NCBI RefSeq assembly: GCF_000802305.1 | Contig: NZ_JTDK01000001.1 | Span: 310,001-374,000, forward strand | Direction: 5' to 3' | From: Microbacterium mangrovi | GTDB lineage: Bacteria; Actinomycetota; Actinomycetes; Actinomycetales; Microbacteriaceae | Length of the DNA stretch: 64,000 bases | Part shown: one piece after another, positions 2,202 through 46,250 of the stretch | How the letters are laid out: the number at the start of each line of letters is the position of its first letter | How positions within the stretch are numbered: position 1 is the stretch's first letter | Made by a program: the position numbers and the translations under genes | Notes under the pieces: generated by a model | The model's input: only the letters and a program-made list of their open reading frames with translations | The model's database searches: none | What the model was told of the DNA's origin: nothing

Positions 2202-4019
2202 ATGTCCGAGCACGAAGCGATCCAATGCATCATCCCGCCGTACATGGTGGACTCCATCCAGCAGAACGGCACGGAGGAGCAGCGAGCCTTCGTCGAGTCG
2301 ACGGCGCAGCTCAGCGAGCGCATCCGCGCCGAGCGCGCTGCGGCACCGGCCAAGCAGGTCGAGGCGACCCCGGGGGAGGGCCTGGCTTCGACTGCGACGA
2401 CGAGGATCTTCGATGCGCGCAACGGGACGAATCTTCCTGGGACGCTCGTGCGGAGCGACGGCGACCAGGCCAGCGGCGACGTCTCCGTGAACGAGGCCTT
2501 CGACGGCCTGAGAGCGACACTCGTCCTGTACGGCGATCAGTTCAACCGGGACTCGGTGGACGGGAACGGCGAGGGGCTGATCGGCAGCGTCCACTACGGC
2601 CGCAACTACGACAACGCGCAGTGGAACGGTACGCAGATGCTGTTCGGCGACGGCGACGGGCGGATCTTCGTGCGATTCACGATCGCCATCGACGTGATGG
2701 GCCACGAGCTCACCCACGGGGTGACCCAGGCCAGCGGTGGGATGGACTACAACGGTCAGAGCGGTGCGCTGAACGAGTCGATGTCGGACGTCTTCGGATC
2801 GATGGTCAAGCAGTACCACGCCTCTCCGCCGCAGACGGCGGCGGATGCCGACTGGCTGATCGGGGCGGGCCTGCTTGCGCCCGGGATCAACGGCGTCGCG
2901 CTGCGGTCGATGAAGGCGCCCGGGACGGCGTACGACGACCCTCTGCTCGGAAAGGACCCGCAGCCCGCGAACATGAGCGGTTACGTCAACACGTCCGACG
3001 ACAACGGCGGGGTGCACACCAATTCCGGCATCCCGAACCATGCCTTCTACCTCGCCGCCGTCGCGCTCGGAGGTCACGCCTGGGAGCGTGCCGGGCAGAT
3101 CTGGTACAACGTGCTGACCGACCCCGGCCGCCCCTCGAACCTGAACTTCCAGGACTTCGCCCAGCGCACGGTGAACACGGCGTTCGCGATGTATCAGGCG
3201 GAAGAGGCGAAGAAGGTCGTGGACGCGTGGGCACAGGTCGGAATCACGGTGAGCCCGCAGTTCGTCAAGGGCCAGCTGCTCTCGTACGGCGATGCGGGGA
3301 CTCCGGGCAACGTGTCGGATCCGGATGTGGTCGGGTTCGGCGGCTGGCAGGCGTTCACATTCCTGTTCGGCGGCCGCAATGCGGCCGGTCGGGATCGGAT
3401 CTACGCCGTCGACGGTCAAGGTCGTCTGCTCTCGTACGGAGATGCGGGGACACCGGGCAACGTGTCGGCCCCCGATGTGGTGGGGTTCGGGGGCTGGCAG
3501 GACTTCCGGTTCCTGTTCTCGGGCCGCAATGCGGCCGGTCAGGACCGGATCTACGCCGTTGACGGTCAGGGCCGGCTTCTCTCGTACGGCGACTCCGGGA
3601 CGCCGGGAAACGTGTCCTCCCCGGATGTGGTCGGGTTCGGCGGCTGGCAGGACTTCCGGTTCCTGTTCGCCGGCCGGAACGCGGCGGGTCAGGATCGGAT
3701 CTACGCCGTCGACGGTCAGGGTCAGCTGCTTTCGTACGGCGACTCCGGGACGCCAGGCAATGTCTCGGATCCGGTCGTCGTCGGGTTCGGCGGCTGGCAG
3801 GACTTCCGGTTCCTGTTCGCCGGCCGGAATGCGGCCGGTCAGGACCGGATCTACGCCGTCGACGGTCAGGGTCAGCTGCTTTCGTACGGCGACTCCGGGA
3901 CGCCGGGCAATGTGTCGAACCCGGATGTCGTCGGGTTCGGCGGCTGGCAGGCGTTCCAGTTCCTGTTCGCGGGCCGCAACGCCTCCGGGCAAGACCGGAT
4001 CTACGCGGTTCCCTCCTGA
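2202..4019 (+). CDS. Protealysin-like M4 metallopeptidase with C-terminal tachylectin-like repeats
   Basis: A 605-residue zinc metalloprotease of the thermolysin family. HELTH at residues 168-172 gives two zinc ligands and the catalytic Glu169; Glu192 in NESMSD is the third ligand; His272 in GVHTNSG matches the transition-state histidine. There is no signal peptide. Instead the N-terminus carries a PPYM motif (residues 12-15), as in the short propeptide of protealysin-type enzymes. Residues about 357-605 are five near-identical 50-residue repeats (LLSYGD, VVGFGGWQ, GRNAAGQDRIYAVDGQG) resembling tachylectin-2-type beta-propeller blades, which bind sugars in known relatives. Start at 2202: GGGAGAAG lies just upstream. 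No emfourin-type inhibitor gene follows, although protealysin genes often have one. Confidence 0.9.
   Translation: MSEHEAIQCIIPPYMVDSIQQNGTEEQRAFVESTAQLSERIRAERAAAPAKQVEATPGEGLASTATTRIFDARNGTNLPGTLVRSDGDQASGDVSVNEAFDGLRATLVLYGDQFNRDSVDGNGEGLIGSVHYGRNYDNAQWNGTQMLFGDGDGRIFVRFTIAIDVMGHELTHGVTQASGGMDYNGQSGALNESMSDVFGSMVKQYHASPPQTAADADWLIGAGLLAPGINGVALRSMKAPGTAYDDPLLGKDPQPANMSGYVNTSDDNGGVHTNSGIPNHAFYLAAVALGGHAWERAGQIWYNVLTDPGRPSNLNFQDFAQRTVNTAFAMYQAEEAKKVVDAWAQVGITVSPQFVKGQLLSYGDAGTPGNVSDPDVVGFGGWQAFTFLFGGRNAAGRDRIYAVDGQGRLLSYGDAGTPGNVSAPDVVGFGGWQDFRFLFSGRNAAGQDRIYAVDGQGRLLSYGDSGTPGNVSSPDVVGFGGWQDFRFLFAGRNAAGQDRIYAVDGQGQLLSYGDSGTPGNVSDPVVVGFGGWQDFRFLFAGRNAAGQDRIYAVDGQGQLLSYGDSGTPGNVSNPDVVGFGGWQAFQFLFAGRNASGQDRIYAVPS
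3270..4019 (+). repeat. Five tandem 150-bp repeats encoding the propeller blades
   Basis: The CTCTCGTACGG (or CTTTCGTACGG) landmark recurs at 3279, 3429, 3579, 3729 and 3879, an exact 150-bp period. Units 3-5 are nearly identical at the DNA level, suggesting recent expansion or gene conversion. A sixth partial, non-coding copy of the last unit lies at 4643-4755. Confidence 0.95.
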
Positions 4020-22357: not shown

Positions 22358-24457
22358 GTGGGGTCATCGGTGCGGCCGACGGTGGGGAAGATCTCCGTCT
22401 CGGCGGTCATGGTCGGTGTGCTGCTCCTGACCGGGATCGGGTCGGCGCAGGCCGCGGGGACGACGGGAACAGCGAGCATGTCCGGACGCGTCACCGACCA
22501 GGTCACAGGAGACCCGATCGCCGGTGAAACGGTGTCGGCGTCCTCGCCGTACTACCGCAACGGCTCCGCGGTCACCGACGCCGACGGAAGGTACACGATC
22601 TCCGGGTTGGATGCCGGGTCGTACACCGTCAAGTTCTCCGGGGATGCCACACACGCGGTCGAGTACTGGAAGAACCAGGTCGCCAGGACCACGGCGACCC
22701 CGGTTCAGACCACCTCGGGCGCCACAGTCGGCGGCATCGATGCCGCGCTGCCTCGGGCGGCGACGGTGGCGGGGCACGTCACACGATCGGATACCGGGGC
22801 CCCGGTGCAGGGCGTGTATGTGACCGTTTCCGATTCTGACGGCGTCGTCACCGGACGAGACACTGCAGCCGATGGCAGCTACAGCCTTCCGGGCATCCCG
22901 CCCGGGACATACACTGTGGAGTTCGAGGATGACTGGTACTCAGCACCGCCTGGTCAAGACCTCGTGCGACAGTACTGGCACGGCACGGACTCGACGGTCA
23001 AGATCGCCCCGCTCACTCTGGCTCCCGACGAGACGCGTTCTGACATCGATGCTGTTCTGGTGCCGGCGGCCCACATCAAGGGAACCGTTTCGGAGGCGGA
23101 CACAGGTGCACCGGTCCCGTACGCCGATCTCACTGTCTCCGGGCCCGACAGCGCATCCGGCGGCACGACCGACGCGAACGGTCACTACGACATCGGCGGG
23201 CTCCTGGCCGGTCCGTACACCGTCACTGTGCGGCCCCGACGCACGACGGGCGTCGCAAACGATGCGCTCCCAGGCTCCGGTGCAGTGTCGGTCGACACCG
23301 GGGAAGCATCCACCTTGGACATCCCGCTGGCGTCGGGCGGCCATATTTCGGGATCGTTCGCGATCGAGTACCCGACGATTCCGGGCGATTGGGCGCGCGT
23401 CACCGCGTTCCGGCTGGTCGGATCGAGCTGGCTCACACAGGAGGCGGATGCTGTTCCGCCCTCTTTCACGCTCGGTGACGGCTATGGAACCGGGGCGCTG
23501 CCGCCCGGGCAGTACATCGTCAAGTTCGAATACACGCAGCGTTGCAGCAAGTATTGGGACGGCGCGTTCACCCAGGCTACGGCGAAACGGATCACCGTGA
23601 CCGCGCACCATACGGTGAGCAATATCGCGGCGTACCTGACCCTCAGGTGCACCAATCCGGCCATTGGACCGGGCGCTGTCGGCATCTCGGGTGTTCCCGC
23701 GGCCGGAGCGAAGCTGACCGCCTGGACGACGAGTTGGAAACCGGACGCCGTCGCCTTCACATATCAGTGGTACTCGGTTTCCGGCACCACCTCCACCGCC
23801 ATCAGGGGCGCGACGGGCCGTACCTTCACGCCGACCTCCGCCCAGGTCGGCAGGGGGATCAAGGTCGTGGCCCGCGGAAAGCTGCCCGGGACTGCGTCGG
23901 TCTCTCGCACCTCTGCGGTCACCAAGAGAGTCGCCGCCGCCGCGGTTCCGACGATCAGCGGCATCCGTGCGGTCGGCTACCGGGTCACCGCCGTCCACGG
24001 CAGCTGGACAAGCGGGACGACGTTCTCCTACTCGTGGTACGCCGACGGCTCCTACATCCCGGGAAGCTCCGGCGCGACGCATGCCTCCCTGACTCTGACG
24101 ACGGCGCAGCGCGGCAGGCAGATCTCGGTTCGAGTGACGGGGTCGAAGCCCGGTTACGCGACGGTGTCGAAGACGAGTGCCCGCACGGCGAAGGTGGCCC
24201 AGACGGCGGCGCCGACGATCACCGGCACCCGCGCCGTCGACGACGTGCTCACCGCCCACCCGGGTGTGTGGACCGCTGGCACGAAATTCGCGTACCGCTG
24301 GTACGCGAACGGTGTCGTGATCCCGGGCGCCACGGTCTCCACGTTCAAGGTCACATCGGCGCAGCGGGGCAAGGCGATCAAGGTGGTCGTGACCGGCCTT
24401 CTGACCGGGTACGCGACGATCTCCCGCACCTCGGCCCCCACGGCGCGCATCACCTAA
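22358..24457 (+). CDS. Secreted multidomain protein: CarboxypepD-like and Ig-like modules (paralogue 1)
   Basis: A 699-residue exported protein with a signal peptide (residues about 1-33, cleavage after SAQA) and no visible sorting motif or membrane anchor. The first 430 or so residues hold several carboxypeptidase-regulatory-like beta-sandwich domains (SGRVTDQVTGDPIAGETV, DGRYTISGLDAGSYTVKF). The last 270 hold three roughly 80-residue Ig-like modules with the signature TFSYSWYADG, TSAQRGKAIKVVVTG, GYATISRTSAPTA. The GTG at 22358 follows GGAGGCGAAG. Two paralogues lie directly downstream. A cell-surface or adhesive role is plausible but not shown. Confidence 0.85.
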   Translation: MGSSVRPTVGKISVSAVMVGVLLLTGIGSAQAAGTTGTASMSGRVTDQVTGDPIAGETVSASSPYYRNGSAVTDADGRYTISGLDAGSYTVKFSGDATHAVEYWKNQVARTTATPVQTTSGATVGGIDAALPRAATVAGHVTRSDTGAPVQGVYVTVSDSDGVVTGRDTAADGSYSLPGIPPGTYTVEFEDDWYSAPPGQDLVRQYWHGTDSTVKIAPLTLAPDETRSDIDAVLVPAAHIKGTVSEADTGAPVPYADLTVSGPDSASGGTTDANGHYDIGGLLAGPYTVTVRPRRTTGVANDALPGSGAVSVDTGEASTLDIPLASGGHISGSFAIEYPTIPGDWARVTAFRLVGSSWLTQEADAVPPSFTLGDGYGTGALPPGQYIVKFEYTQRCSKYWDGAFTQATAKRITVTAHHTVSNIAAYLTLRCTNPAIGPGAVGISGVPAAGAKLTAWTTSWKPDAVAFTYQWYSVSGTTSTAIRGATGRTFTPTSAQVGRGIKVVARGKLPGTASVSRTSAVTKRVAAAAVPTISGIRAVGYRVTAVHGSWTSGTTFSYSWYADGSYIPGSSGATHASLTLTTAQRGRQISVRVTGSKPGYATVSKTSARTAKVAQTAAPTITGTRAVDDVLTAHPGVWTAGTKFAYRWYANGVVIPGATVSTFKVTSAQRGKAIKVVVTGLLTGYATISRTSAPTARIT

Positions 24458-25617
24458 CCCCTGCGTTCACCGTCACCGGCAAGATCTCGGTTCCGGCATC
24501 CGCGTCCGCCGCGCGTCCCGAGGTGCGCCTCATGGTGGCGGACCAGCCCACGGGATACTCCCGATGGAAGGATGCCGATCCCGAGCTGACCGCGGTCGCG
24601 AAGTCCGACGGCACGTATTCGATTGCCGGCGTTCCGGCGGGCACGTACACCGCCTACTTCGACGACAGCGCATGGTCGGGCGCGGTCGCGCCCCAGTACT
24701 ACGGAGGCACGCCCAACATCAGCCTCGCGAAGCCCTTCGTCGTCGGCTCGGCGGCGACGACCACGGTGAGCGCGACGCTCGCGCGCGGCGCGTCGGTGTC
24801 GGGGAAGATCACCGACTCATCCGGCAAGCTCGTTCCCGACTCGGCGGCTCGGGTGGCACTGAAGCTCACCGTCGACGGCAAGACCGTCTGGCAGTGGGGT
24901 GCGATCCCGACGGACCCGACGGGGACATTCTCCGAGAAGGGTCTGCCCGCGGGCACGTACGCCGTCGGGTACGCCGCAGACGTGGGTTTCGCCGACAGCT
25001 ACTACGGCGGCGGCCATTCGTTCGACACCGCGACGAACTTCGTGCTCACGGCGGGGTCCTCCAAGACCGGGGTGAACGGTGTCCTGCTCAGGCTGCTCAC
25101 GGCGCCCACCCCGACGATCACCGGTACGCGGTCGGTCGGCTCGACGCTGACGGCGCACGCCGGCGCCTGGACGACCGGGGCCGCGCTCACGTACCAGTGG
25201 TTCGCGAACGGCGTCTACATCACCGGCTCGACCTCCACGCATCCCACCCTCGCGCTGACGGGCGCGCAGAAGGGCAAGCAGATCTCGGTGAAGGTCACCG
25301 GAAAGAAGTCCGGCTATGCGGCGGCGTCGCGTACGAGCGCCCGCACGGCGAAGATCGCGCTCACCGCGGTCCCGACGATCACCGGGATCCGGACCGTCGG
25401 GTCGACGCTGACGGCGCACCCCGGCACCTGGACGGCCGGCACCGTCTTCACGTACCGCTGGTACGCGAGCGGGGTCGCGATCTCCGGGGCGACGCAGCCG
25501 ACCGTGACACTGACCTCCCTGCAACGCGGCAAGACGGTCAAGGTCGTGGTCACCGGGTCCGATCCCGGATACCAGACGATCTCGCGGGCCTCGGCATCCA
25601 CCGCCGCGATCGGCTGA
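24458..25617 (+). pseudogene. 5'-truncated paralogue 2 of the secreted multidomain protein
   Basis: Immediately after the stop of paralogue 1, in another frame, the sequence reads FTVTGKISVPASAS and continues through two CarboxypepD-like domains and two Ig-like modules to a normal stop. Aligned to paralogue 3 it begins at the equivalent of residue about 143, so the signal peptide, the first domain, the start codon and the promoter are all missing. The first in-frame ATG (24532) lies inside a domain. I infer a deletion that removed the intergenic region and the 5' end. A frameshifted extension of paralogue 1 is the alternative. Confidence 0.75.
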
Positions 25618-25739
25618 ACCGGACCGCTCCGTCTCGTTACCCCTTGCGGCCACGGGTCGCAGGGGTCTATACATATCCCAACATCAACAGAACGCCGCGC
25701 TGCTGGGGAGCGCACGGCACGAACAACCGGGGAGTCTTC

Positions 25740-27071
25740 ATGAGGATTCGTGCCATGCGCAAGACCGGGATCGGCGTCCTCGCCGTCGGAGCGCTCGCCG
25801 TCTCGCTGCTCGCGATCGGCGGATCGCAGGCGGCGGTCGCCGCGGACTACGCGACCATCTCCGGAACGGTGAGGGCGGATGACGGCGGCGGCACGCTGAC
25901 GTACCCGTACGTCGAGCTGTACAAGAAGTCCGGAACGACCTGGAACTTCTACGACTCGACCTCCGGCGGCACCAACGGGACGTACCACTTCCAGAACATC
26001 GCGACCGGAACCTACACCCTCGTCTTCGCGGCACAGCACGGCGACAACTACGTCAGCGAGTGGTGGGACAACAAGCCCAGCCAGGCGACGGCCACGACCA
26101 TCGCGGTCAGCAACACGATCGGCAGCGTCACCCACCTCACCGCGGACGCGAGCCTCGCCACCGGCGCGACGATCTCGGGTCACCTCACTGTTCCGGCATC
26201 GACGTTCACGGCCGACCCCTACATCTCCCTCCTCCAGCCGGACACGAGTCAGGGCTACAACGGATGGAAGTACGCGGGTCTCTGGGCGGACCCGGCGGAG
26301 GACGGCAGCGGGAACTTCACGATCGCCGGCATCCCGGCCGGCACCTATTCCCTGTACTTCGGTGATCAGGCGGCGCAGAGCGACTTCGCTCCGCTGTACT
26401 ACAAGTCGGGAGGCGCCGGGAACGGGACGCCGAACGACTGGCAGGCATCCTCTGTGGTGCTCACGGCCGGGCAGGCCGTGACGGGCATCAACGTCACGTT
26501 CACGCATGGCGCGACGGTCACCGGCAAAGTGACCGACTACGCCGGCACGGCGATCTCAGGCGTCAAAGCCACCTTCTGGCGCCAGACGAGCCTGGTCATC
26601 GGGGGAGCGCAGCAGTGGGAGCCGTGGGCGGCGACCACGGGCACGACCGGGACGTTCAAGGCGCTCGGACTGCCGGCCGGAACGTACGGCCTCGAATACA
26701 CGAAGACCGGATACACGACCGTCGAGTATCTCGGCGGCGCGACCTTCACGCTCGGCTCGGGCCAGGCGAAAGCCTTCCCGACCCTGAAGATGTACAAGAA
26801 GCTGACCTCGTCCGTGCCCACCATCTCTGGCACCAAGAAGGTCGGGTACAAGCTGACCGCGAACCACGGCACCTGGACGGCGGGCACGTCGTTCTCGTAC
26901 GCCTGGTACGCGAACGGGGTCTACATCTCGGGGACCTCCGGTCCGACGCATTCCACGTTCACCCTGACGTCGGCGCAGCGCGGAAAGAAGATCACGGTGA
27001 AGGTGACGGGCAAGAAGGCGGGTTACACGACGCTGACGCGCACCAGCGCGGCCACCGTCGCGATCCTCTGA
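25740..27071 (+). CDS. Secreted multidomain protein (paralogue 3)
   Basis: A 443-residue exported protein. The signal peptide ends near AVAAD (residues about 1-35). Three CarboxypepD-like domains follow (YATISGTVRADDGGG, GATISGHLTVPAS, GATVTGKVTDYAG) and a single Ig-like module closes the protein (VPTISGTKKVGYKLTANH to the end). GGGGAG stands about eight bases before the ATG. It shares all modules with its upstream neighbours but has only one Ig-like unit, so module number varies between the copies. There is no anchor motif, so it is either released or held non-covalently at the surface. Confidence 0.85.
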   Translation: MRIRAMRKTGIGVLAVGALAVSLLAIGGSQAAVAADYATISGTVRADDGGGTLTYPYVELYKKSGTTWNFYDSTSGGTNGTYHFQNIATGTYTLVFAAQHGDNYVSEWWDNKPSQATATTIAVSNTIGSVTHLTADASLATGATISGHLTVPASTFTADPYISLLQPDTSQGYNGWKYAGLWADPAEDGSGNFTIAGIPAGTYSLYFGDQAAQSDFAPLYYKSGGAGNGTPNDWQASSVVLTAGQAVTGINVTFTHGATVTGKVTDYAGTAISGVKATFWRQTSLVIGGAQQWEPWAATTGTTGTFKALGLPAGTYGLEYTKTGYTTVEYLGGATFTLGSGQAKAFPTLKMYKKLTSSVPTISGTKKVGYKLTANHGTWTAGTSFSYAWYANGVYISGTSGPTHSTFTLTSAQRGKKITVKVTGKKAGYTTLTRTSAATVAIL

Positions 27072-29930: not shown

Positions 29931-30200
29931 ATGCCCACGCTCCGCGCCCGACACATGATCACCGAAACGGACGAGATCCGGGCGGCGATCGACGAGGCGG
30001 CGGCGTTCTGGCCCGACGCCGCGGGCAACCGTGCCGAGCTGGTCCGTCGTCTCCTCCTGCAGGGCGCGCCCAGCGCGCTCGAGACCGAGACCCGGCGCCG
30101 GATCGCGTTCCTCGCGTCGGTCGACGACGCGGCAGGGAGCATGCGCGGGGTGTACCCGAATGATGCCGCACGAAGCCTGACCGAGGAATGGCCGGACTGA
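29931..30200 (+). CDS. Putative VapB-like antitoxin
   Basis: An 89-residue acidic, mostly helical protein (ITETDEIRAAIDEAAAFWPDAAGNRAELVRRL split by short turns) encoded directly before a PIN-domain protein and overlapping it by 13 bases. That order, size and overlap, and the inverted-repeat operator covering the promoter, identify it as the probable antitoxin; the sequence itself does not fit a DNA-binding family that I can name with certainty. The message is predicted to be leaderless. Confidence 0.7.
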   Translation: MPTLRARHMITETDEIRAAIDEAAAFWPDAAGNRAELVRRLLLQGAPSALETETRRRIAFLASVDDAAGSMRGVYPNDAARSLTEEWPD

Positions 30201-30631
30201 GCGTGGGGGGAGTCGTGCCCCGGTCGGCGGTCGTCGACGCGGGTGTCCTGATCGCATTCCTCGACCCCGACGACGCGCATCACGACTGGGCCGTGCGCGT
30301 GGTGCGGACGCTCGGACCGGGACAGGCGCGGATCACGGCCCTGACCCTCGCCGAGGCGATGGTGCACCCGGCGATGGCGGGGAGGGCCGAGGAGGCGCGG
30401 GCCGGTGTCCGGAGCCTGGGGGTCGACGTGCTCCCCCTCACCGACGACGACGTGCTGCCGCTCGCCGGGCTGCGGGCATCCTCGCGGCTGCGGATGCCGG
30501 ACGCGGTCGTGCTCCATGCGGCGATACGCGCGTCGGCGGCGGTCGCCACGACCGACCGCTCGCTTGCCCGGTCGGCCGTGGGTGCGGGTCTGCCGCTCTA
30601 TGCGCCGTTCCGCGTCCTCGCGCCCGGCTGA
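30188..30631 (+). CDS. PIN-domain protein, putative VapC-like toxin
   Basis: A 147-residue PIN-fold ribonuclease candidate. The conserved acidic residues are present: Asp in VVDAGVLIAFLDPDD, Glu in LTLAEAMVHP, Asp in RMPDAVVLHA and Asp in ATTDRSLA, the expected Mg-binding set. It overlaps the upstream antitoxin-like gene by 13 bases. VapC toxins cleave tRNA or rRNA when the antitoxin is degraded; the RNA target here is unknown. It sits between the LigD-type polymerase and the LigC-type ligase. Confidence 0.85.
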   Translation: MAGLSVGGVVPRSAVVDAGVLIAFLDPDDAHHDWAVRVVRTLGPGQARITALTLAEAMVHPAMAGRAEEARAGVRSLGVDVLPLTDDDVLPLAGLRASSRLRMPDAVVLHAAIRASAAVATTDRSLARSAVGAGLPLYAPFRVLAPG

Positions 30632-40471: not shown

Positions 40472-40481
40472 GGCGCACCTC

Positions 40482-40524
40482 GAAGGCCCTGGGCCCCGGC
40501 ATCCATCCGGGGCCCAGGGCCTTC
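40482..40524 (+). terminator. Terminator after sucCD
   Basis: An 18-base-pair perfect stem (GAAGGCCCTGGGCCCCGG and its complement) closes a seven-base loop. There is no clear T run, but the stem is exceptionally stable and is followed by the next gene's promoter. Confidence 0.8.
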
Positions 40525-40585
40525 GCGTCTGCCGGCGCCGAGAGCGCGGTGCATTCGCATCACCGACGACGGTAGCGTGTACGGA

Positions 40586-41623
40586 ATGCGACTCGGGATC
40601 GACTTCGGAACCACGCGCACGGTCGTCGCCGGCGTCGACCGCGGCGTTCACCCCGTCCTGGAGTTCGAGGATCACGCGGGCGGCGCGCACGGGTTCTTCC
40701 CGACAGTGGTCGCGCTCGCGGCCGGGCGCCTTGTCTTCGGCTTCGAGGCCCTCGAGGCGGGTCGGCGCGGGGCGCCGGTGCTCCGCTCGTTCACGCACCT
40801 CCTCGGCGATCCGGTGCTGCAGGCCGACAGCACGGCATCCGTCGGCTCGCGCGAGGTGCCCCTCGTCGATCTCCTCGCCGCCTACCTCCGTGACGTCCGG
40901 GACCGGCTGCCGGTGGATCCCGGCGAAGTGGCCGTCTCGGTTCCCGCACACGCGCCCGACACCCGGCGTCACCTCACGCTCGAGGCTTTTCGCGCAGCGG
41001 ACTTCGCAGTCGTCGCCACGATCGACGAGCCGTCGGCCGCCGCCTTCGAGTACACGCATCGGCACGCGCGCAGCCTGACGGCGCGGCGCTCGCAGATCGG
41101 CGTCTTCGACCTCGGCGGCGACACCTTCGACGCATCGCTGCTGGACGCGAGAGGCGGGCAGCCCGCCGTGCTCGAGACCCGCCGGGTGCCCCGGCTCGGC
41201 AGCGACGACTTCGACCGGATCCTCGTCGATCTCGTGCTCGCGCGGGTCGGAGCCTGGCGGGAGGCTCTCGAACCGGCCGTGCTCGAGAACCTCGAAGGGC
41301 AGTGCCGCGCCGCCCTGGAGCGCCTGACGCCCCAGACCCGGCGCATCGCCGTCGATGTCCACGGCGATCAGGTCGTGGTGCCCGTCGACGAGCTCTGGGC
41401 GGCGATCGGCCCGCTCGTCGAGCGGTGCCTCGCCGAGATGGACCCGCTGGTCGGCGTTCTGGATCGCGATTCCTCCGTGGCCGGCATCTCGCTCGTCGGC
41501 AGCGGATCGCGCCTGCCGCTGGTGTCGCGCCTCGCCCGCGAGCGCTACGGCAGCCGCGTGCATCGCTCGCCCCACCCATCCGCCGCGACCGCGATCGGGC
41601 TCGCGATCTCCATCGATCGCTGA
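40586..41623 (+). CDS. Hsp70-like ATPase without substrate-binding domain
   Basis: A 345-residue actin/Hsp70-fold ATPase. Phosphate loop 1 is GIDFGTTRTVV (residues about 4-14), phosphate loop 2 GVFDLGGDTFDAS, and the adenosine motif SLVGSGSRLPLVSRL; VSVPAHAPDTRR and DEPSAAAFEY match DnaK. It ends where the nucleotide-binding domain of DnaK ends, so there is no peptide-binding domain or lid. TAGCGT ends seven bases before ATG 40586. It lies 117 bases before a ParR/ParM-like pair, another actin-fold system. A functional link is attractive but unproven. Confidence 0.82.
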   Translation: MRLGIDFGTTRTVVAGVDRGVHPVLEFEDHAGGAHGFFPTVVALAAGRLVFGFEALEAGRRGAPVLRSFTHLLGDPVLQADSTASVGSREVPLVDLLAAYLRDVRDRLPVDPGEVAVSVPAHAPDTRRHLTLEAFRAADFAVVATIDEPSAAAFEYTHRHARSLTARRSQIGVFDLGGDTFDASLLDARGGQPAVLETRRVPRLGSDDFDRILVDLVLARVGAWREALEPAVLENLEGQCRAALERLTPQTRRIAVDVHGDQVVVPVDELWAAIGPLVERCLAEMDPLVGVLDRDSSVAGISLVGSGSRLPLVSRLARERYGSRVHRSPHPSAATAIGLAISIDR

Positions 41624-41672
41624 TCCCGTCCACACGGACGAAGCGCGACGCCGAGCATTCACTCGGACGGGA
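41624..41672. promoter_or_regulatory. Nested inverted repeats upstream of the parR-like gene
   Basis: TCCCGTCC (41624-41631) pairs with GGACGGGA (41665-41672). Inside lie CGTCC-ACAC-GGACG (41627-41640) and CCGAG-CATTCA-CTCGG (41651-41666). Three CGTCC/GGACG half-sites thus cluster in 49 bases, directly before a possible -10 (GATAAT). It is a candidate operator or centromere-like site for the adaptor protein. Confidence 0.6.
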
Positions 41673-41740
41673 TAATGTACGTTGGCAGTGGCGTGTCGCG
41701 GTGATCCGGCGTGCTGACGAGCAAGGAATGGAGCGCGGTA

Positions 41741-42196
41741 GTGGCCCAGACGGCATCCGCCCGCAAGGTGCAGCTCACCATCCCGCCTGCCGACACCACC
41801 ATGAACGAGTGGCTGGATGTCCAGTACTCGGCGGCCGACTCCATCCGCAAGCTCATCCGCGAGTCCGTTGCGCGCGAAGGCTTCACCGACGTCGCCAACC
41901 GCCCGGTGCGCCCGCCGGCGAACCCCATCTACGTCGCGGAGGACTTCCCCGACGAGCCTCCCGCTCCGTCGGCCGAAGAGCCGGGCTCGGCGCGTGACGA
42001 GCCGGCCCCCGCCGCGAAGCCGGTGCGTGAGCCGTCTCCCGCCCCGAAACCGGTGCGCAAGCCGGCCCCCGCAGCCGAAGACGACGGGGCGGAGCCGCGT
42101 GCTGCCGCCCCCCGCACGGCAACGCCCAGGACTCGCCGAGTGCAGGCCGCCGACCGATCCGCGACCGACACCATCAACGACATCCTCGGTCTCTGA
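41741..42196 (+). CDS. Putative ParR-like adaptor protein
   Basis: A 151-residue protein. Residues about 6-52 (SARKVQLTIPPADTTMN, DSIRKLIRESVAREGFTDV) resemble the ribbon-helix-helix DNA-binding part of ParR proteins. The rest is a disordered Pro/Ala/Glu tail with repeated KPVR segments, ending in a short conserved-looking TDTINDILGL, a plausible filament-binding peptide. I chose GTG 41741, with GGAG eight bases upstream, over the earlier GTG at 41711. The next gene encodes a ParM-like actin. The family assignment rests on pattern and context and is not certain. Confidence 0.65.
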   Translation: MAQTASARKVQLTIPPADTTMNEWLDVQYSAADSIRKLIRESVAREGFTDVANRPVRPPANPIYVAEDFPDEPPAPSAEEPGSARDEPAPAAKPVREPSPAPKPVRKPAPAAEDDGAEPRAAAPRTATPRTRRVQAADRSATDTINDILGL

Positions 42197-42244
42197 CCCC
42201 TCCTTCCCTCTTCATCCGACTACGCGGAAAGAAAGGCTTCCCCT

Positions 42245-43555
42245 ATGAGCTCGGACATCATCCACCTCACCGGCGGCATCGACGTCGGCAACGGTTACGT
42301 CAAGGGCATGATCCTCAACACGGACACCGACGTGCGCGACCGGATCGACCTGCCCAGCGCCATCGTCGCCACGCCTCGCCAGTCGCCGAAGGTCCCGGTC
42401 GAGGACGATGAGGCGCTGCAGGTGATGGAGGATGCCGAGCAGGACTTCTACAACCGCCTCGACGCATCCATCTCGTCGCCGCTGGTCGCCGACAGCGACC
42501 GTCGCATCTTCGGTCGGGCGGCGCTCAGCGTGCGCGGCTCGGCGTTCAGCGAATTCGAGGTGCACGACGGCCACGCCAGCAAGGCCGACCAGCAGCTCAG
42601 CAAGATCCTGGTGCTCGGCGTGTACGCCGCCAAGGCGCTGCGAGACTACGTGCGCGAGAACGGCGAGCTGCCCGACCACGAGCTGCGCGTCGAGGTGCGC
42701 ACCGGCCTGGCCCTGCCGATCAGCGAGTTCGTCGCGCGCCGCTACGGCTACGCCGGCGAGTTCATCGGCTCGAAGGGCTCGGCCGTGCACCTGGTCACGA
42801 TCAAGAACTTCAACACCCCCGTCAGCCTGCGCCTCGAGTTCGTGGACGTCCAGGTCGTCGCCGAGGGCGCGTCCGCGCAGTTCGCCATCTCGGACAAGGG
42901 CGAACCGCTCGCCAACGCGCTGCTGGCCGACCTGCGCTCCCGCGAGGCGGACTTCCTGCCCGAGATCACCGGCGCCGACCTCGTCGCCGCGCAGCACACC
43001 ATCGGCATCGACGTCGGCGAGGGCACGGTCAACTTCCCCGTGTTCACGGCGGGCCGGTTCAACGCCGAAGCAGCCTCGACGCTGGACATGGGGTACGGCA
43101 CGATCCTCGAGAACGCGCTCGACCGCCAGGACGAGGCCGATCTGCGCTTCACGAGCCGCAAGCAGCTCGCCGACTTCCTGCAGACCGCTCCGACGGCGCT
43201 GCAGCGCGGTCGCCACCAGCGCGCCGAGCGCCTCGTCGAGCCCGACGTCAAGCACCTCGTCGAGCAGATCCGCCGTGCCTTCGACGAGACGCTCAGCCAG
43301 TCGGGCGAGTCGACCGAGGTCGTCTACGTCTACGGTGGCGGCTCCGGCCCGATCAAGGATGCCCTCTACCCCGAGCTCATCCGCACCGCCGGTGACGTCC
43401 CCGTCCTCTACCTCGACGCCCGCTACTCGCGCCACCTGAACCGCGAGGGCCTGTTCCTCGCCGCGCGTGCCGCCGAGGAGGAGGGCCGCGCGATCGACAG
43501 CGGCACCGAGCCCACCCGGCGCGCCTCTCGGAAGCACACGACGATCGCTTCCTGA
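42245..43555 (+). CDS. ParM/StbA-like actin homologue
   Basis: A 436-residue bacterial actin. Phosphate loop 1 is GIDVGNGYVKG (Asp13), phosphate loop 2 GIDVGEGTVNF (Asp256), and the adenosine motif VYVYGGGSGPIKDAL near residue 360, all as in ParM/StbA, which polymerise with ATP to push plasmids apart. It follows the ParR-like gene after 48 bases and is preceded by an Hsp70-like gene. Codon usage matches the surrounding chromosome and no plasmid or phage genes are near. The Lys/Arg-rich C-terminus may contact DNA or membrane. A strong terminator follows. Confidence 0.85.
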   Translation: MSSDIIHLTGGIDVGNGYVKGMILNTDTDVRDRIDLPSAIVATPRQSPKVPVEDDEALQVMEDAEQDFYNRLDASISSPLVADSDRRIFGRAALSVRGSAFSEFEVHDGHASKADQQLSKILVLGVYAAKALRDYVRENGELPDHELRVEVRTGLALPISEFVARRYGYAGEFIGSKGSAVHLVTIKNFNTPVSLRLEFVDVQVVAEGASAQFAISDKGEPLANALLADLRSREADFLPEITGADLVAAQHTIGIDVGEGTVNFPVFTAGRFNAEAASTLDMGYGTILENALDRQDEADLRFTSRKQLADFLQTAPTALQRGRHQRAERLVEPDVKHLVEQIRRAFDETLSQSGESTEVVYVYGGGSGPIKDALYPELIRTAGDVPVLYLDARYSRHLNREGLFLAARAAEEEGRAIDSGTEPTRRASRKHTTIAS

Positions 43556-43566
43556 CAGCCAGCGTC

Positions 43567-43602
43567 GAGAAGGGCTCCGGGCACCCGCCCGGGGCCCTTC
43601 TC
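43567..43602 (+). terminator. Terminator after the ParM-like gene
   Basis: GAGAAGGGC pairs with GCCCTTCTC around an inner CCGGGC/GCCCGG stem, followed by GTTCC. It closes the ParR/ParM unit. Confidence 0.8.
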
Positions 43603-43777
43603 GTTCCCCGGCGGGTCTTGACCGGCGCCCGCGAGACAGGTCTTTGCTGCCGAGACAGGGGCGCCGCGCACCCGCGTCGTCGGCGCGAGCATGTTTCGGT
43701 GACGGGTTCTGCGTGGACTCTACTGGCAAGCGCGCAGGAAACGGCCGGCCCCCGGAAACTCGCCCTACGCTGGAGGC

Positions 43778-44224
43778 ATGCCACTGAATGGGGAGTACCT
43801 CCCGTCCACCGCGGAGTGGGCGCGCACGCAGGCCGAGAAGTTCGAGGCGACCGAGGGAGCCGAGGCCAACGAGCTGCGCGGCCGGCCGATCATCGTCCTG
43901 ACCACGGTGGGCGCCAAGACGGGGGCGCTGCGCAAGACGGCGCTCATGCGCGTCGAGCACGACGGCCGGTACGTCGTCGTCGCGTCCAAGGGCGGCGCGC
44001 CCCACGAGCCCAAGTGGGCCGGCAACATCCGCCGGCATCCGCACGTCGAACTCCAGGACGGCGCGGTCAAGCGCGACTACGACGCCCGCGAGCTCGACGT
44101 CGACGGCGACGAGTACGCCACCTGGTGGAAGCGCGCCAACGAGACCTGGCCGTCGTACGACGACTACCAGACCAAGACCGACCGGCGCATCGCGCTCTTC
44201 CTCCTCGAGCCCCGCGAGGCGTGA
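43778..44224 (+). CDS. Deazaflavin (F420)-dependent nitroreductase family protein
   Basis: A 148-residue split-beta-barrel protein of the Ddn family. [27 protein letters not shown] residues (quoted in part: [13 protein letters not shown]) and [15 protein letters not shown] are characteristic; relatives use coenzyme F420 to reduce quinones or nitro compounds. Start at ATG 43778 with TACGCT ending six bases upstream (leaderless). The next gene begins inside its stop codon. Confidence 0.88.
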
Positions 44225-44964
44225 CGGACCTCGAGCTCGCGCGGATCGCCGCGGGCGCGGTCACGCTGCACGACGCCCGGCGCAAGGTCCGCCGCACCGT
44301 CGAGCTCGAGCCGTTCGAGATCGGCGTCTATCCGGTCACGCAGGCCCAGCTCGGCGATCTGCTCGGCATCGCGGCGGAGTCCCCGCGCCGCCCCGCGGTC
44401 GAGGTCACCTGGATGCGGGCCATCCGGTTCTGCAACGCCGCCTCCGAGTGGGAGGGCCTCGACCCGGCCTACCGGGTCGACGGCGACGAGGTCGCCTGGC
44501 AGGTGGATGCCGACGGCTTCCGCCTGCCCACCGAGGCCGAGTGGGAATTCGCCTGCCGCGCCGGTTCCACGGGTGCGCAGTACGGCCCGCTCGCCGAGGT
44601 CGCGTGGACGAGCGCCGACGGCCTCACCGCACCGGCCGAGGTGGGCGGGAGGATGCCGAACCTCAACGGTCTCTTCGACACCCTCGGGAACGTGTGGGAG
44701 TGGTGCTGGGACCTGCTCGATCCCGCCCGCTACCGGGACTACCGGGTGTTCCGCGGAGGCGGGTACGCCGACGACGCGCACAGCGTGCGGGCATCCACCC
44801 GCCGCGGCGGCGGCCCGACGATGGCGTACGAGGACGTCGGATTCCGCGTGGCGCGCGGCGGCTTCGACACGGCGGACGCCGCGCAGGGCTGGTCGGCGCA
44901 GCAGGATGCCGAACGGGCCGACATCGACGGCCCGCTCCCACCGGGCTGGACGCCGTTGCGGTGA
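44221..44964 (+). CDS. Formylglycine-generating-enzyme-like (SUMF1/EgtB/PvdO) protein
   Basis: A 247-residue protein with the FGE-sulfatase fold: ITAGAVTL-like start, [36 protein letters not shown], and a final GFRVARG. The two cysteines that bind copper and oxidise the sulfatase cysteine in true formylglycine-generating enzymes are absent: the segment from [13 protein letters not shown] through [17 protein letters not shown] has none. It is therefore probably not a sulfatase activator. GTG 44221 overlaps the stop of the F420-type gene, so the two proteins are made together. Function unknown. Confidence 0.8.
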
Positions 44965-44997
44965 TCCGGAGGGGGTGAACGGTAGGGTCGATCAGGC

Positions 44998-46227
44998 ATG
45001 AACCGCCTCCTCGTCACCCTGCTCTCCGCCCTGGACGCCGCCATCGCGGCCGTCATCGGGCTGGCTGCCGTCGTCGTGCCGCTCGTGCTGCTGTGGCTGT
45101 TCGGGATGCCGGGGGCGTCATGGATCGGGCTGTGGCCGACGGCGGCGTCCATCTGGCAGCTCGGGCACCTCGTGCCGGTCACCCTGCATCTGCCCGCGCA
45201 GTACCTCGCGGCCACCGGCATCCCGGAGTCGGCTGCGGCCTTCACCGTGTCGCTGGCCCCGCTCGCGTTCACGGCGTTCACGGCGATCTTCGCCGCCCGC
45301 TCGGGCGGCCGGGCGGTGCGCGCGGGGGACGGTCCCGCGGGCGTCGGCGCCGGGGCCGTCGTGTTCGCGATCGTCGCCGCCCTCGTGCTGGCGACCTCCC
45401 GCACCGACGTCGCGGTGGTGAACGGCTGGCTCGCCGTGTTCGTCCCCGCCCTGGTGTTCCTCGTCGGCGGCCTTCTCGGGTGGTTCGGCACCGCCTGGCG
45501 CGACGGCGACGGCGGCCGCATCGACGCGCTGCGCGACCGGATCGACGCGTTGCCGGACGGCTGGGGGATCGTGCCGGATGCCGCGCTGCGCGGGGCCGTG
45601 GCCGCCCTCACCGGCCTGATCTCGCTGGGCGCCGCGGCGGTCGCCGTGGACGTCCTATTCAATGGCAGCCGGATCATCGCCCTGTACGAGGCGGGCAACA
45701 TGAGCGTCATCGGCGTGGTCATCACGTCGCTCGGCCAGCTGGCCTACCTCCCGACGATGATCGTCTGGGCGGTGTCGTACATCTCCGGCCCCGGTTTCGT
45801 CTTCGGCACGGCGGGTGCCGTCTCGCCCGCCGGCACCCACCTCGGCGTGGTGCCCGGCATCCCCGTTCTCGGCGCCCTGCCCGCGCACAGCTCCCCGTGG
45901 ATGCTGATCGTCGTGCTGCTGCCGATCGCGATCGGCGCGGGTGCGGGCTACCTGGTGCGCGTTCGCCTCCTCGAGGACGGTGACGGCGAGGACGCCCCGT
46001 TCGGTCCGCGCGCGATCGCCGCGATCGGCATCGCGCTGCTGTCCGCTGCAGGCATGGCCGTGCTCGCGGCCGTGTCGTCGGGCTCCATCGGCCCGGGCGG
46101 CCTCGCCCACGTCGGCCCGATCTGGTGGGCGGCCGCCCTGGCTGTGGGCGTCGAGGTGCTCCTCGGCGCGGCCATCCTGCTGCTCGGCTCCCGCTCCCGG
46201 CGGGAGACCGGGATGACGCCGGTCTGA
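44998..46227 (+). CDS. PerM-like membrane protein (DUF6350)
   Basis: A 409-residue integral membrane protein with about ten hydrophobic segments. Its place directly before purN and purH matches mycobacterial perM (Rv0955), a DUF6350 protein linked to cell division and persistence. Motifs are few ([23 protein letters not shown], seen as [20 protein letters not shown]). TAGGGT lies nine bases before the ATG. Function in this organism is inferred from synteny. Confidence 0.78.
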
Positions 46228-46250
46228 GCGCTCTCCACTAAGCTGGGCGC

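What the first reader, a model, noticed from the sequence alone, without database searches (positions are those of the whole stretch)
40586..43555. Chromosomal ParR/ParM-like actin module with a truncated Hsp70-like ATPase
An Hsp70-like ATPase lacking any substrate-binding domain is followed by a small putative ribbon-helix-helix protein with a long disordered tail and a full-length ParM/StbA-like actin. Plasmid ParMR systems are known, but here there is no plasmid, phage or integration gene nearby, and the module sits between sucCD and ordinary genes. Two actin-fold proteins side by side suggest a chromosomally fixed filament system, perhaps for positioning DNA or a cell-wall complex. The ParR assignment is by pattern and context.
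Basis: partly seen in the sequence, partly recalled or inferred. Interest (0 to 1): 0.75.

Follow-up and report, generated by a model that had tools for sequence, protein, structure and literature searches.

The report
Chromosomal ParR–ParM actin cassette in Microbacterium
A Microbacterium genome carries, as a bare pair of genes among ordinary chromosomal genes, an actin-like protein predicted to form filaments and a small partner protein that likely ties those filaments to DNA, a kind of machine best known from plasmids; the Hsp70-like gene beside it is likely a local passenger and is not part of the conserved pair.

The parts
41741..42196 (+). ParR-like adaptor, 151 aa, GTG start with GGAG 7 bases upstream; residues ~8-60 conserved core, 61-142 low-confidence Pro/Ala-rich linker, 143-151 conserved C-terminal peptide (DTINDILGL here)
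   Evidence: AlphaFold helices 19-46 and 141-149, mean pLDDT 60.8
42245..43555 (+). ParM/AlpC-type actin-like ATPase, 436 aa; phosphate-1 GGIDVGNGYVKG (10-21), phosphate-2 GIDVGEGTVN (254-263), adenosine loop YVYGGG (361-366); motif names recalled
41676..41687 (+). promoter-like element TGTACGTTGGCA: TAnnnT (extended -10 type) whose end lies 38-59 bases before the parR start in six representative loci
   Evidence: score 94.4, shuffled mean 76.8, maximum 81.6 in 25 runs (20 restarts each against 60; the method forces one site per sequence, and two of the six share a site by descent); the -10 reading is inference
43566..43603 (+). inverted repeat after parM (17-nt arms, 94% complementary), likely terminator; comparable hairpins directly follow parM in three of the five other loci tested
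   Evidence: in L033 the repeat lies inside the called next frame, in L037 the next gene overlaps parM
40586..41623 (+). truncated Hsp70-family protein (nucleotide-binding half only, phosphate-2 loop DLGGDT); neighbour, not part of the conserved pair

Best explanation
This is a two-gene partition-type actin module (ParR-ParM, with the adaptor-first gene order of AlpA-AlpC) sitting as a bare cassette in a Microbacterium chromosome; its actin-like protein is predicted to polymerise with ATP, and its small partner likely grips the filament with its conserved C-terminal peptide while its N-terminal domain likely holds DNA. Shown here: the gene pair and its conservation, intact nucleotide motifs, the three-part layout of the partner, five chromosomal sites, plasmid relatives with the same gene order. 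Predicted: the ParM-type fold, the promoter and the terminator. Inferred: polymerisation, DNA binding by an RHH-type dimer, coupling through the C-terminal peptide, and origin from a plasmid or integrated element. The most likely job is accessory DNA positioning (of a chromosomal region carrying an unrecognised ParR site, or of co-resident plasmids or phages in trans), because the core that would bind DNA is conserved; general chromosome segregation is unlikely since ParB is present and the pair is in under 3% of the genus genomes searched.
For: ParM fold and motifs. ParR-like directly upstream in 11 of 11 Microbacterium loci (10 of 10 hits of the genus search plus L039), and also in Arthrobacter L036, in the three other order-level hits G586, G607, G730, in four plasmids and in one viral contig. 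Core entropy 0.81 bits and C-terminal peptide 0.89 against 1.98 for the linker over 23 sequences. Plasmid homologues with adaptor-first order: Streptomyces NBC_01454 (68.5%), Gordonia pGKT2 and two Rhodococcus plasmids (43-44%). Published: AlpA binds DNA with alpS repeats upstream of alpAC and co-sediments with AlpC filaments; pGKT2 carries homologues of both in the same order (PMC4446434, abstract, sections 16, 20, 25). Profile match of the adaptor core to the protein beside ParM of L. salivarius pMP118, probability 89.8, E 1.8e-6 for this one comparison. Purifying selection. One Microbacterium clade in the tree, SH-aLRT 100 (quick method). ParB found in 9 of 9 genomes.
Against: No centromere-like repeat array in the non-coding DNA of the seven Microbacterium loci tested. 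No family or structure library recognises the adaptor as RHH; the AlphaFold monomer shows one continuous helix 19-46 and no strand. AlpA itself was reported to have no homology to ParR or AlfB (PMC5539076, passages), so kinship of this adaptor with AlpA is untested. Position relative to dnaA is not constant: 51-60 kb in three genomes of one site, inferred 0.56-1.02 Mb for the window's site.
Confidence: 0.6

Rival explanations
1. Repurposed cytoskeleton: the pair has lost its centromere and now forms host filaments that position the membrane, wall or division machinery, as FcmB-FcmC do in filamentous cyanobacteria.
For: Chromosomal, no mobility gene recognised, no repeat array found. Probably no MreB in the 13 genomes tested: the tool counts a PF06723 match over the cut-off in 13 of 13, but the best ones score only 57-68.5 bits in frames of 607-688 aa, in G000 at the place of an Hsp70/DnaK-sized match, so I read them as DnaK. 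FcmBC is a ParMR-derived chromosomal pair needed for rod shape (PMC12645912, abstract, section 6 and passages); CorM (9rmi) is among the best structural matches.
Against: Found in 10 of 366 genus genomes, so no general shape role; the adaptor core is conserved; gene order is the reverse of fcmB-fcmC; no membrane-binding feature was tested.
Confidence: 0.22
2. Remnant or plasmid-interfering copy: a partition cassette captured from plasmids that persists because it titrates or displaces incoming plasmids with the same centromere, or as a slowly decaying relic.
For: Patchy distribution, five sites; plasmid relatives exist.
Against: ParM dN/dS 0.15-0.26 and conserved motifs speak against decay; no Microbacterium among the plasmid records listed (60 of 74 matching).
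Confidence: 0.12
3. The three genes form one operon in which the Hsp70-like protein is a chaperone or second filament protein for ParM.
Against: Not beside the pair in the other 10 Microbacterium loci; a promoter-like element lies in the gap; phosphate-2 glycine replaced by Asp and C-terminal domain missing.
Confidence: 0.06

Closest known systems
AlpA-AlpC/alpS of Corynebacterium glutamicum prophage CGP3 (PMC4446434, PMC5539076)
   Same: Actinomycetota; actin-like ATPase nearer to ParM than MreB; small adaptor encoded upstream of the actin; that paper lists a Gordonia KTR9 (pGKT2) and a L. salivarius UCC118 protein as AlpC homologues, and the same two plasmids were found here as relatives (that they are the same genes is inferred)
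Chromosome-encoded ParMs (cParMR) of Desulfitobacterium and Clostridium (PMC12270681)
   Different: Bacillota; in Desulfitobacterium syntenic in five of six species, with cParR downstream; here adaptor upstream, patchy, five sites; four actinobacterial search terms gave no hit in its text
FcmB-FcmC of Nostoc (PMC12645912); CorM/CorR of Anabaena (PDB 9rmi, title only)
   Different: FcmBC is conserved across heterocyst formers, has the actin gene first, membrane filaments and a shape phenotype; none of these is shown here
Alp7A / BtParM / R1 ParMRC plasmid partition systems
   Different: Plasmid-borne, with a centromere next to the genes (recalled)

Membership tests
Type II (ParMR/AlpAC) partition module | ParM-type actin with intact nucleotide-binding motifs | tested here: met
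   (fold by prediction)
Type II (ParMR/AlpAC) partition module | adaptor gene adjacent to the actin gene | tested here: met
   11 of 11 Microbacterium loci; also Arthrobacter L036, G586, G607, G730, four actinobacterial plasmids and viral contig L111
Type II (ParMR/AlpAC) partition module | adaptor has a ribbon-helix-helix DNA-binding domain | tested here: inconclusive
   no Pfam/PDB/AlphaFold support; sequence pattern and profile match to the L. salivarius protein; weak to the L. reuteri one (probability 20)
Type II (ParMR/AlpAC) partition module | adaptor ends in a filament-binding peptide | tested here: inconclusive
   conserved C-terminal nonapeptide after a variable linker; binding not tested
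Type II (ParMR/AlpAC) partition module | centromere-like repeats (parC/alpS) by the genes | tested here: inconclusive
   none in non-coding DNA of seven Microbacterium loci; found at the Streptomyces plasmid (4 copies, 0 of 60 shuffles) but not at the Gordonia and Rhodococcus plasmids, so the test can miss them; repeats inside the parR linker coding region exist in several loci but differ between them
Type II (ParMR/AlpAC) partition module | nucleotide-dependent polymerisation | not testable with these tools
   needs protein
Chromosome-encoded ParM (cParM) | gene on the chromosome | tested here: met
   between sucD and purN/purH; in G297 and G299 on single 3.6-3.7 Mb contigs that also hold dnaA
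FcmBC/CorMR cytoskeletal pair | actin gene upstream of the adaptor gene | tested here: not met
   order is adaptor then actin; fcmC is downstream of fcmB
FcmBC/CorMR cytoskeletal pair | membrane filaments and shape phenotype | not testable with these tools
   needs cells
Hsp70 chaperone (the 40586-41623 protein) | C-terminal domain beyond the nucleotide-binding half | tested here: not met
   345 aa against about 480-555 aa in most listed relatives

The most novel reading that the evidence does not exclude
An actinobacterial AlpAC/ParMR lineage has shed its centromere and its mobile element, travels as a naked two-gene cassette into unrelated chromosomal sites, and serves MreB-less hosts as an actin cytoskeleton: a second, independent conversion of a plasmid segregation motor into a cell-architecture system.
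Probability: 0.15. Interest if true: 0.8.

Novelty: new member of a known kind. Interest (0 to 1): 0.48.

Why it matters
It places a ParMR/AlpAC-type actin on the chromosomes of an actinobacterial genus that probably lacks MreB, and ties it to plasmids of Streptomyces, Gordonia and Rhodococcus. [quoted passage not shown] actinobacterial plasmids with this lineage may have been overlooked, though two of the four seen here also carry a ParA gene and so may not fall in that class. What chromosomal ParMs do is an open question stated in PMC12270681; species with and without the cassette in one genus make it testable.

Tried and rejected
Trio as a unit: rejected, the Hsp70-like gene is not beside the pair in 10 of 11 Microbacterium loci. 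In one search, 97 of 99 genus genomes matched the Hsp70-like query at E <= 0.001, but the best match outside G000 was 33% identity over part of it; no close homologue.

The 41624-41672 inverted repeat as parC: rejected as a family feature. Its chance level: 13 of 500 shuffles reached 9 bp, while the gap itself holds 8.

The shared upstream motif as parC: rejected in favour of an extended -10, which is inference.

Repeats: weak two-copy pairs exist downstream of parM in the window (7 of 60 shuffles reach them) and upstream in L050 (6 of 60). Direct repeats inside the linker-coding part of parR were seen in the window (two 30-nt copies), L034, L039 and L050; they differ between loci and I take them for repetitive linker, but a site hidden there is not excluded.

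Origin-proximal location as a hint of chromosome segregation: 51-60 kb from dnaA in G297, G299 and G120, all at one site; not general (contigs taken as circular).

RHH by structure: AlphaFold on 27 close sequences gave a low-confidence monomer and two meaningless PDB matches.

Phage origin: no match in 50,697 phage records; one viral contig (L111, 43%) has ParM with an adaptor-like frame upstream; a scan with the Microbacterium adaptors found none.

Wider distribution: 4 of 396 genomes drawn from the order (own included) and 1 of 394 from the class (own only); the protein search scored only 7998 candidates and listed 120 of 927. The tree used 42 chosen rows, not all homologues. My synteny tables rest on a simple home-made gene caller and tblastn, not on curated annotation; the names HAD hydrolase and cold-shock protein for flanking genes are recalled from the sequence, not from a call.

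Literature: apart from the AlpAC prophage papers, no paper on an actinobacterial chromosomal ParM appeared in the rows listed by searches (20 of 22, 5 of 5, 20 of 2,431, 3 of 3 and 8 of 17 papers listed). CorM/CorR: no paper found; known here from the PDB title and recall.

Full report
What is there. The window is G000:C1:310001-374000 of a 4.4 Mb assembly. Gene order is sucC, sucD, Hsp70-like, ParR-like, ParM-like, F420H2-dependent reductase, FGE-sulfatase-like protein, DUF6350 protein, purN, purH.

The partner. The 151-aa protein has no recognised domain. Over 23 sequences its core (residues 10-60, mean entropy 0.81 bits) and its last nine residues (0.89) are conserved while the 80-residue Pro/Ala-rich linker is not (1.98). 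In Microbacterium the end reads I(D/N)D(L/I)LGL; Arthrobacter L036 ends LKDMLGI, the Streptomyces plasmid copy has SIDEIM, Gordonia and Rhodococcus plasmids DDFEDLF, G607 VNDIFSMTR, G730 VNDIFSMLR, G586 MSDFLTGS. The proteins beside the L. salivarius and L. reuteri plasmid ParMs carry a similar short stretch near their ends, and the L. salivarius one matches the core by profile comparison (probability 89.8, E 1.8e-6 for one comparison; L. reuteri only 20). This is the layout of a ParR: DNA-binding domain, tether, filament-binding peptide. That R1 ParR binds ParM by its C-terminal peptide is recalled and is reflected in the title of PDB 4a62. The RHH fold itself is not shown: the AlphaFold monomer (pLDDT 60.8) shows helices 19-46 and 141-149 and no strand.

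A pair, not a trio. ParM was found in 10 of 366 genus genomes, own included (8 of 340 of good quality). In those 10 and in one further named genome (L039) the adaptor lies directly upstream of ParM, 11 of 11 (in L048 the ParM frame is cut by the contig end). The Hsp70-like gene is beside the pair only in the window genome. Its nearest relatives are three metagenome proteins of the same short length (73-76%) and then proteins mostly of about 480-555 aa (up to 58%), largely from Actinomycetota where named, with about 150 more residues. In the window protein the phosphate-2 loop reads DLGGDT; 11 of the 12 relatives aligned have DLGGGT, the twelfth (P0152) is also altered. Contig lengths of 2115 and 1811 bp appear in both the Hsp70-like and the ParR-like hit lists with the same source labels, which suggests that sister lineages share the adjacency; the contigs could not be read.

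Five chromosomal sites. Seven genomes share a site with a HAD-hydrolase-like gene upstream; a cold-shock-protein-like gene is downstream in six of them, the seventh (L048) being cut off (both names recalled). M. stercoris has the pair between an enoyl-CoA-hydratase-family gene and an AMP-binding gene, M. indicum just upstream of an M18 aminopeptidase, strain G2-8 after a ketopantoate-reductase gene, and the window genome between sucD and the F420 reductase. In three of 13 relatives (L091, L092, L097) sucD is followed within about 140 bp or less by the F420 reductase, i.e. an empty site, while others carry other DNA in that interval. A promoter-like TAnnnT element precedes parR in six representatives (a method that forces one site per sequence; the score exceeds all 25 shuffled runs), and a hairpin directly follows parM in four of six loci examined. 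No mobility gene was recognised in the 20 window proteins scanned.

Where it comes from. Microbacterium ParMs form one clade (SH-aLRT 100) next to Arthrobacter efr-133 and a Streptomyces/Amycolatopsis/Saccharothrix group (42 chosen rows, quick method). Plasmid relatives number 74 records; the four actinobacterial ones examined have the same adaptor-first order, the two Lactobacillus ones have the small gene downstream. Donovan et al. 2015 list a Gordonia KTR9 and a L. salivarius UCC118 protein as homologues of AlpC and note that pGKT2 has the gene order of alpA-alpC (PMC4446434). I conclude that this is an actinobacterial AlpAC/ParMR lineage. The AlpA and AlpC sequences themselves were not compared.

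The missing centromere. The alpAC promoter region has 24 alpS repeats, bound by AlpA. No repeat family stands out in the non-coding parts of the seven Microbacterium loci tested (two-copy pairs at 6-7 of 60 shuffles in two of them). The same test finds four copies of an 18-nt repeat upstream of the Streptomyces plasmid parR (0 of 60 shuffles reach it) and three upstream of G586 (1 of 60), but nothing clear at the Gordonia and Rhodococcus plasmids, so absence is not proof. Repeats inside the linker-coding part of parR differ between loci.

What it does. All nine genomes tested have ParB and under 3% of the genus genomes have the pair, so it is not the general chromosome segregation system. dnaA lies 51-60 kb away in three genomes of one site; for the window's site I infer 0.56-1.02 Mb from the sucD-dnaA distance in six single-contig genomes taken as circular. 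The MreB family scored over its cut-off in 13 of 13 genomes, but the best matches are weak (57-68.5 bits) in DnaK-sized frames, so I think no true MreB is present. Two published precedents point two ways: AlpAC moves prophage DNA, FcmBC shapes cells. I favour accessory DNA positioning because the putative DNA-binding core is as conserved as the C-terminal peptide, with a repurposed cytoskeleton as the main rival.

Novelty. Chromosomal ParMs (PMC12270681; abstract and sections 4, 5, 13 read) and ParMR-derived shape systems (PMC12645912; abstract, section 6 and passages) are in print. New here, as far as the rows listed by searches show, are the actinobacterial chromosomal cassette, its five sites and the adaptor architecture. 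[quoted passage not shown] the plasmids suggest that an actinobacterial branch was not recognised, although pGKT2 and pGS01 also carry ParA genes. I rate it a new member of a known kind.

Noticed in passing
L055 (Streptomyces sp. NBC_01454 plasmid), 2849-3146: Four copies of a 20-nt repeat (GGTGTCTCGCAGGTGCCCCG-like) in the DNA upstream of parR, a candidate centromere for this lineage.
   Followed up: partly
L036, L052, L055 adaptor proteins: Arthrobacter, G586 and Streptomyces adaptors carry an AT-hook-like LPRRGRPP stretch after the core that the Microbacterium ones lack (the AT-hook label is recalled).
   Followed up: no
P0095, P0098, P0099, P0110, P0114, P0123 (Arthrobacter, Pseudarthrobacter, Paenarthrobacter): ParM homologues nearly identical across three genera, which suggests a recently spreading element.
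   Followed up: no
window 40472-46250: The sucD-purN interval is a variable slot in Microbacterium: gene content and length differ among the 13 relatives looked at.
   Followed up: partly
plasmids NC_018580.1, NZ_CP133331.1, NZ_CP140265.1, NZ_CP109461.1: Actinobacterial plasmids with ParR-like/ParM-like pairs, a phylum in which a 2026 survey of single-system plasmids found no type II system.
   Followed up: partly
L111:5584-7218 (viral contig IMGVR_UViG_3300021431_004083): A 251-kb viral contig encodes a 43% ParM relative with an adaptor-like frame (core pattern, linker, short end motif) directly upstream.
   Followed up: partly
window 22358-27071: Two large proteins with CarboxypepD_reg/SpaA-type domains (SdrD_B too in the first), perhaps surface proteins.
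   Followed up: no
window 30188-30631: PIN-domain protein downstream of a LigD-type primase-polymerase gene; whether an antitoxin partner lies nearby was not checked.
   Followed up: no
L036:9818-10297 and L052:3652-4254 (reverse complement): A conserved protein without a Pfam match shortly downstream of ParM in both Arthrobacter efr-133 and G586, possibly part of a shared integrated element.
   Followed up: no
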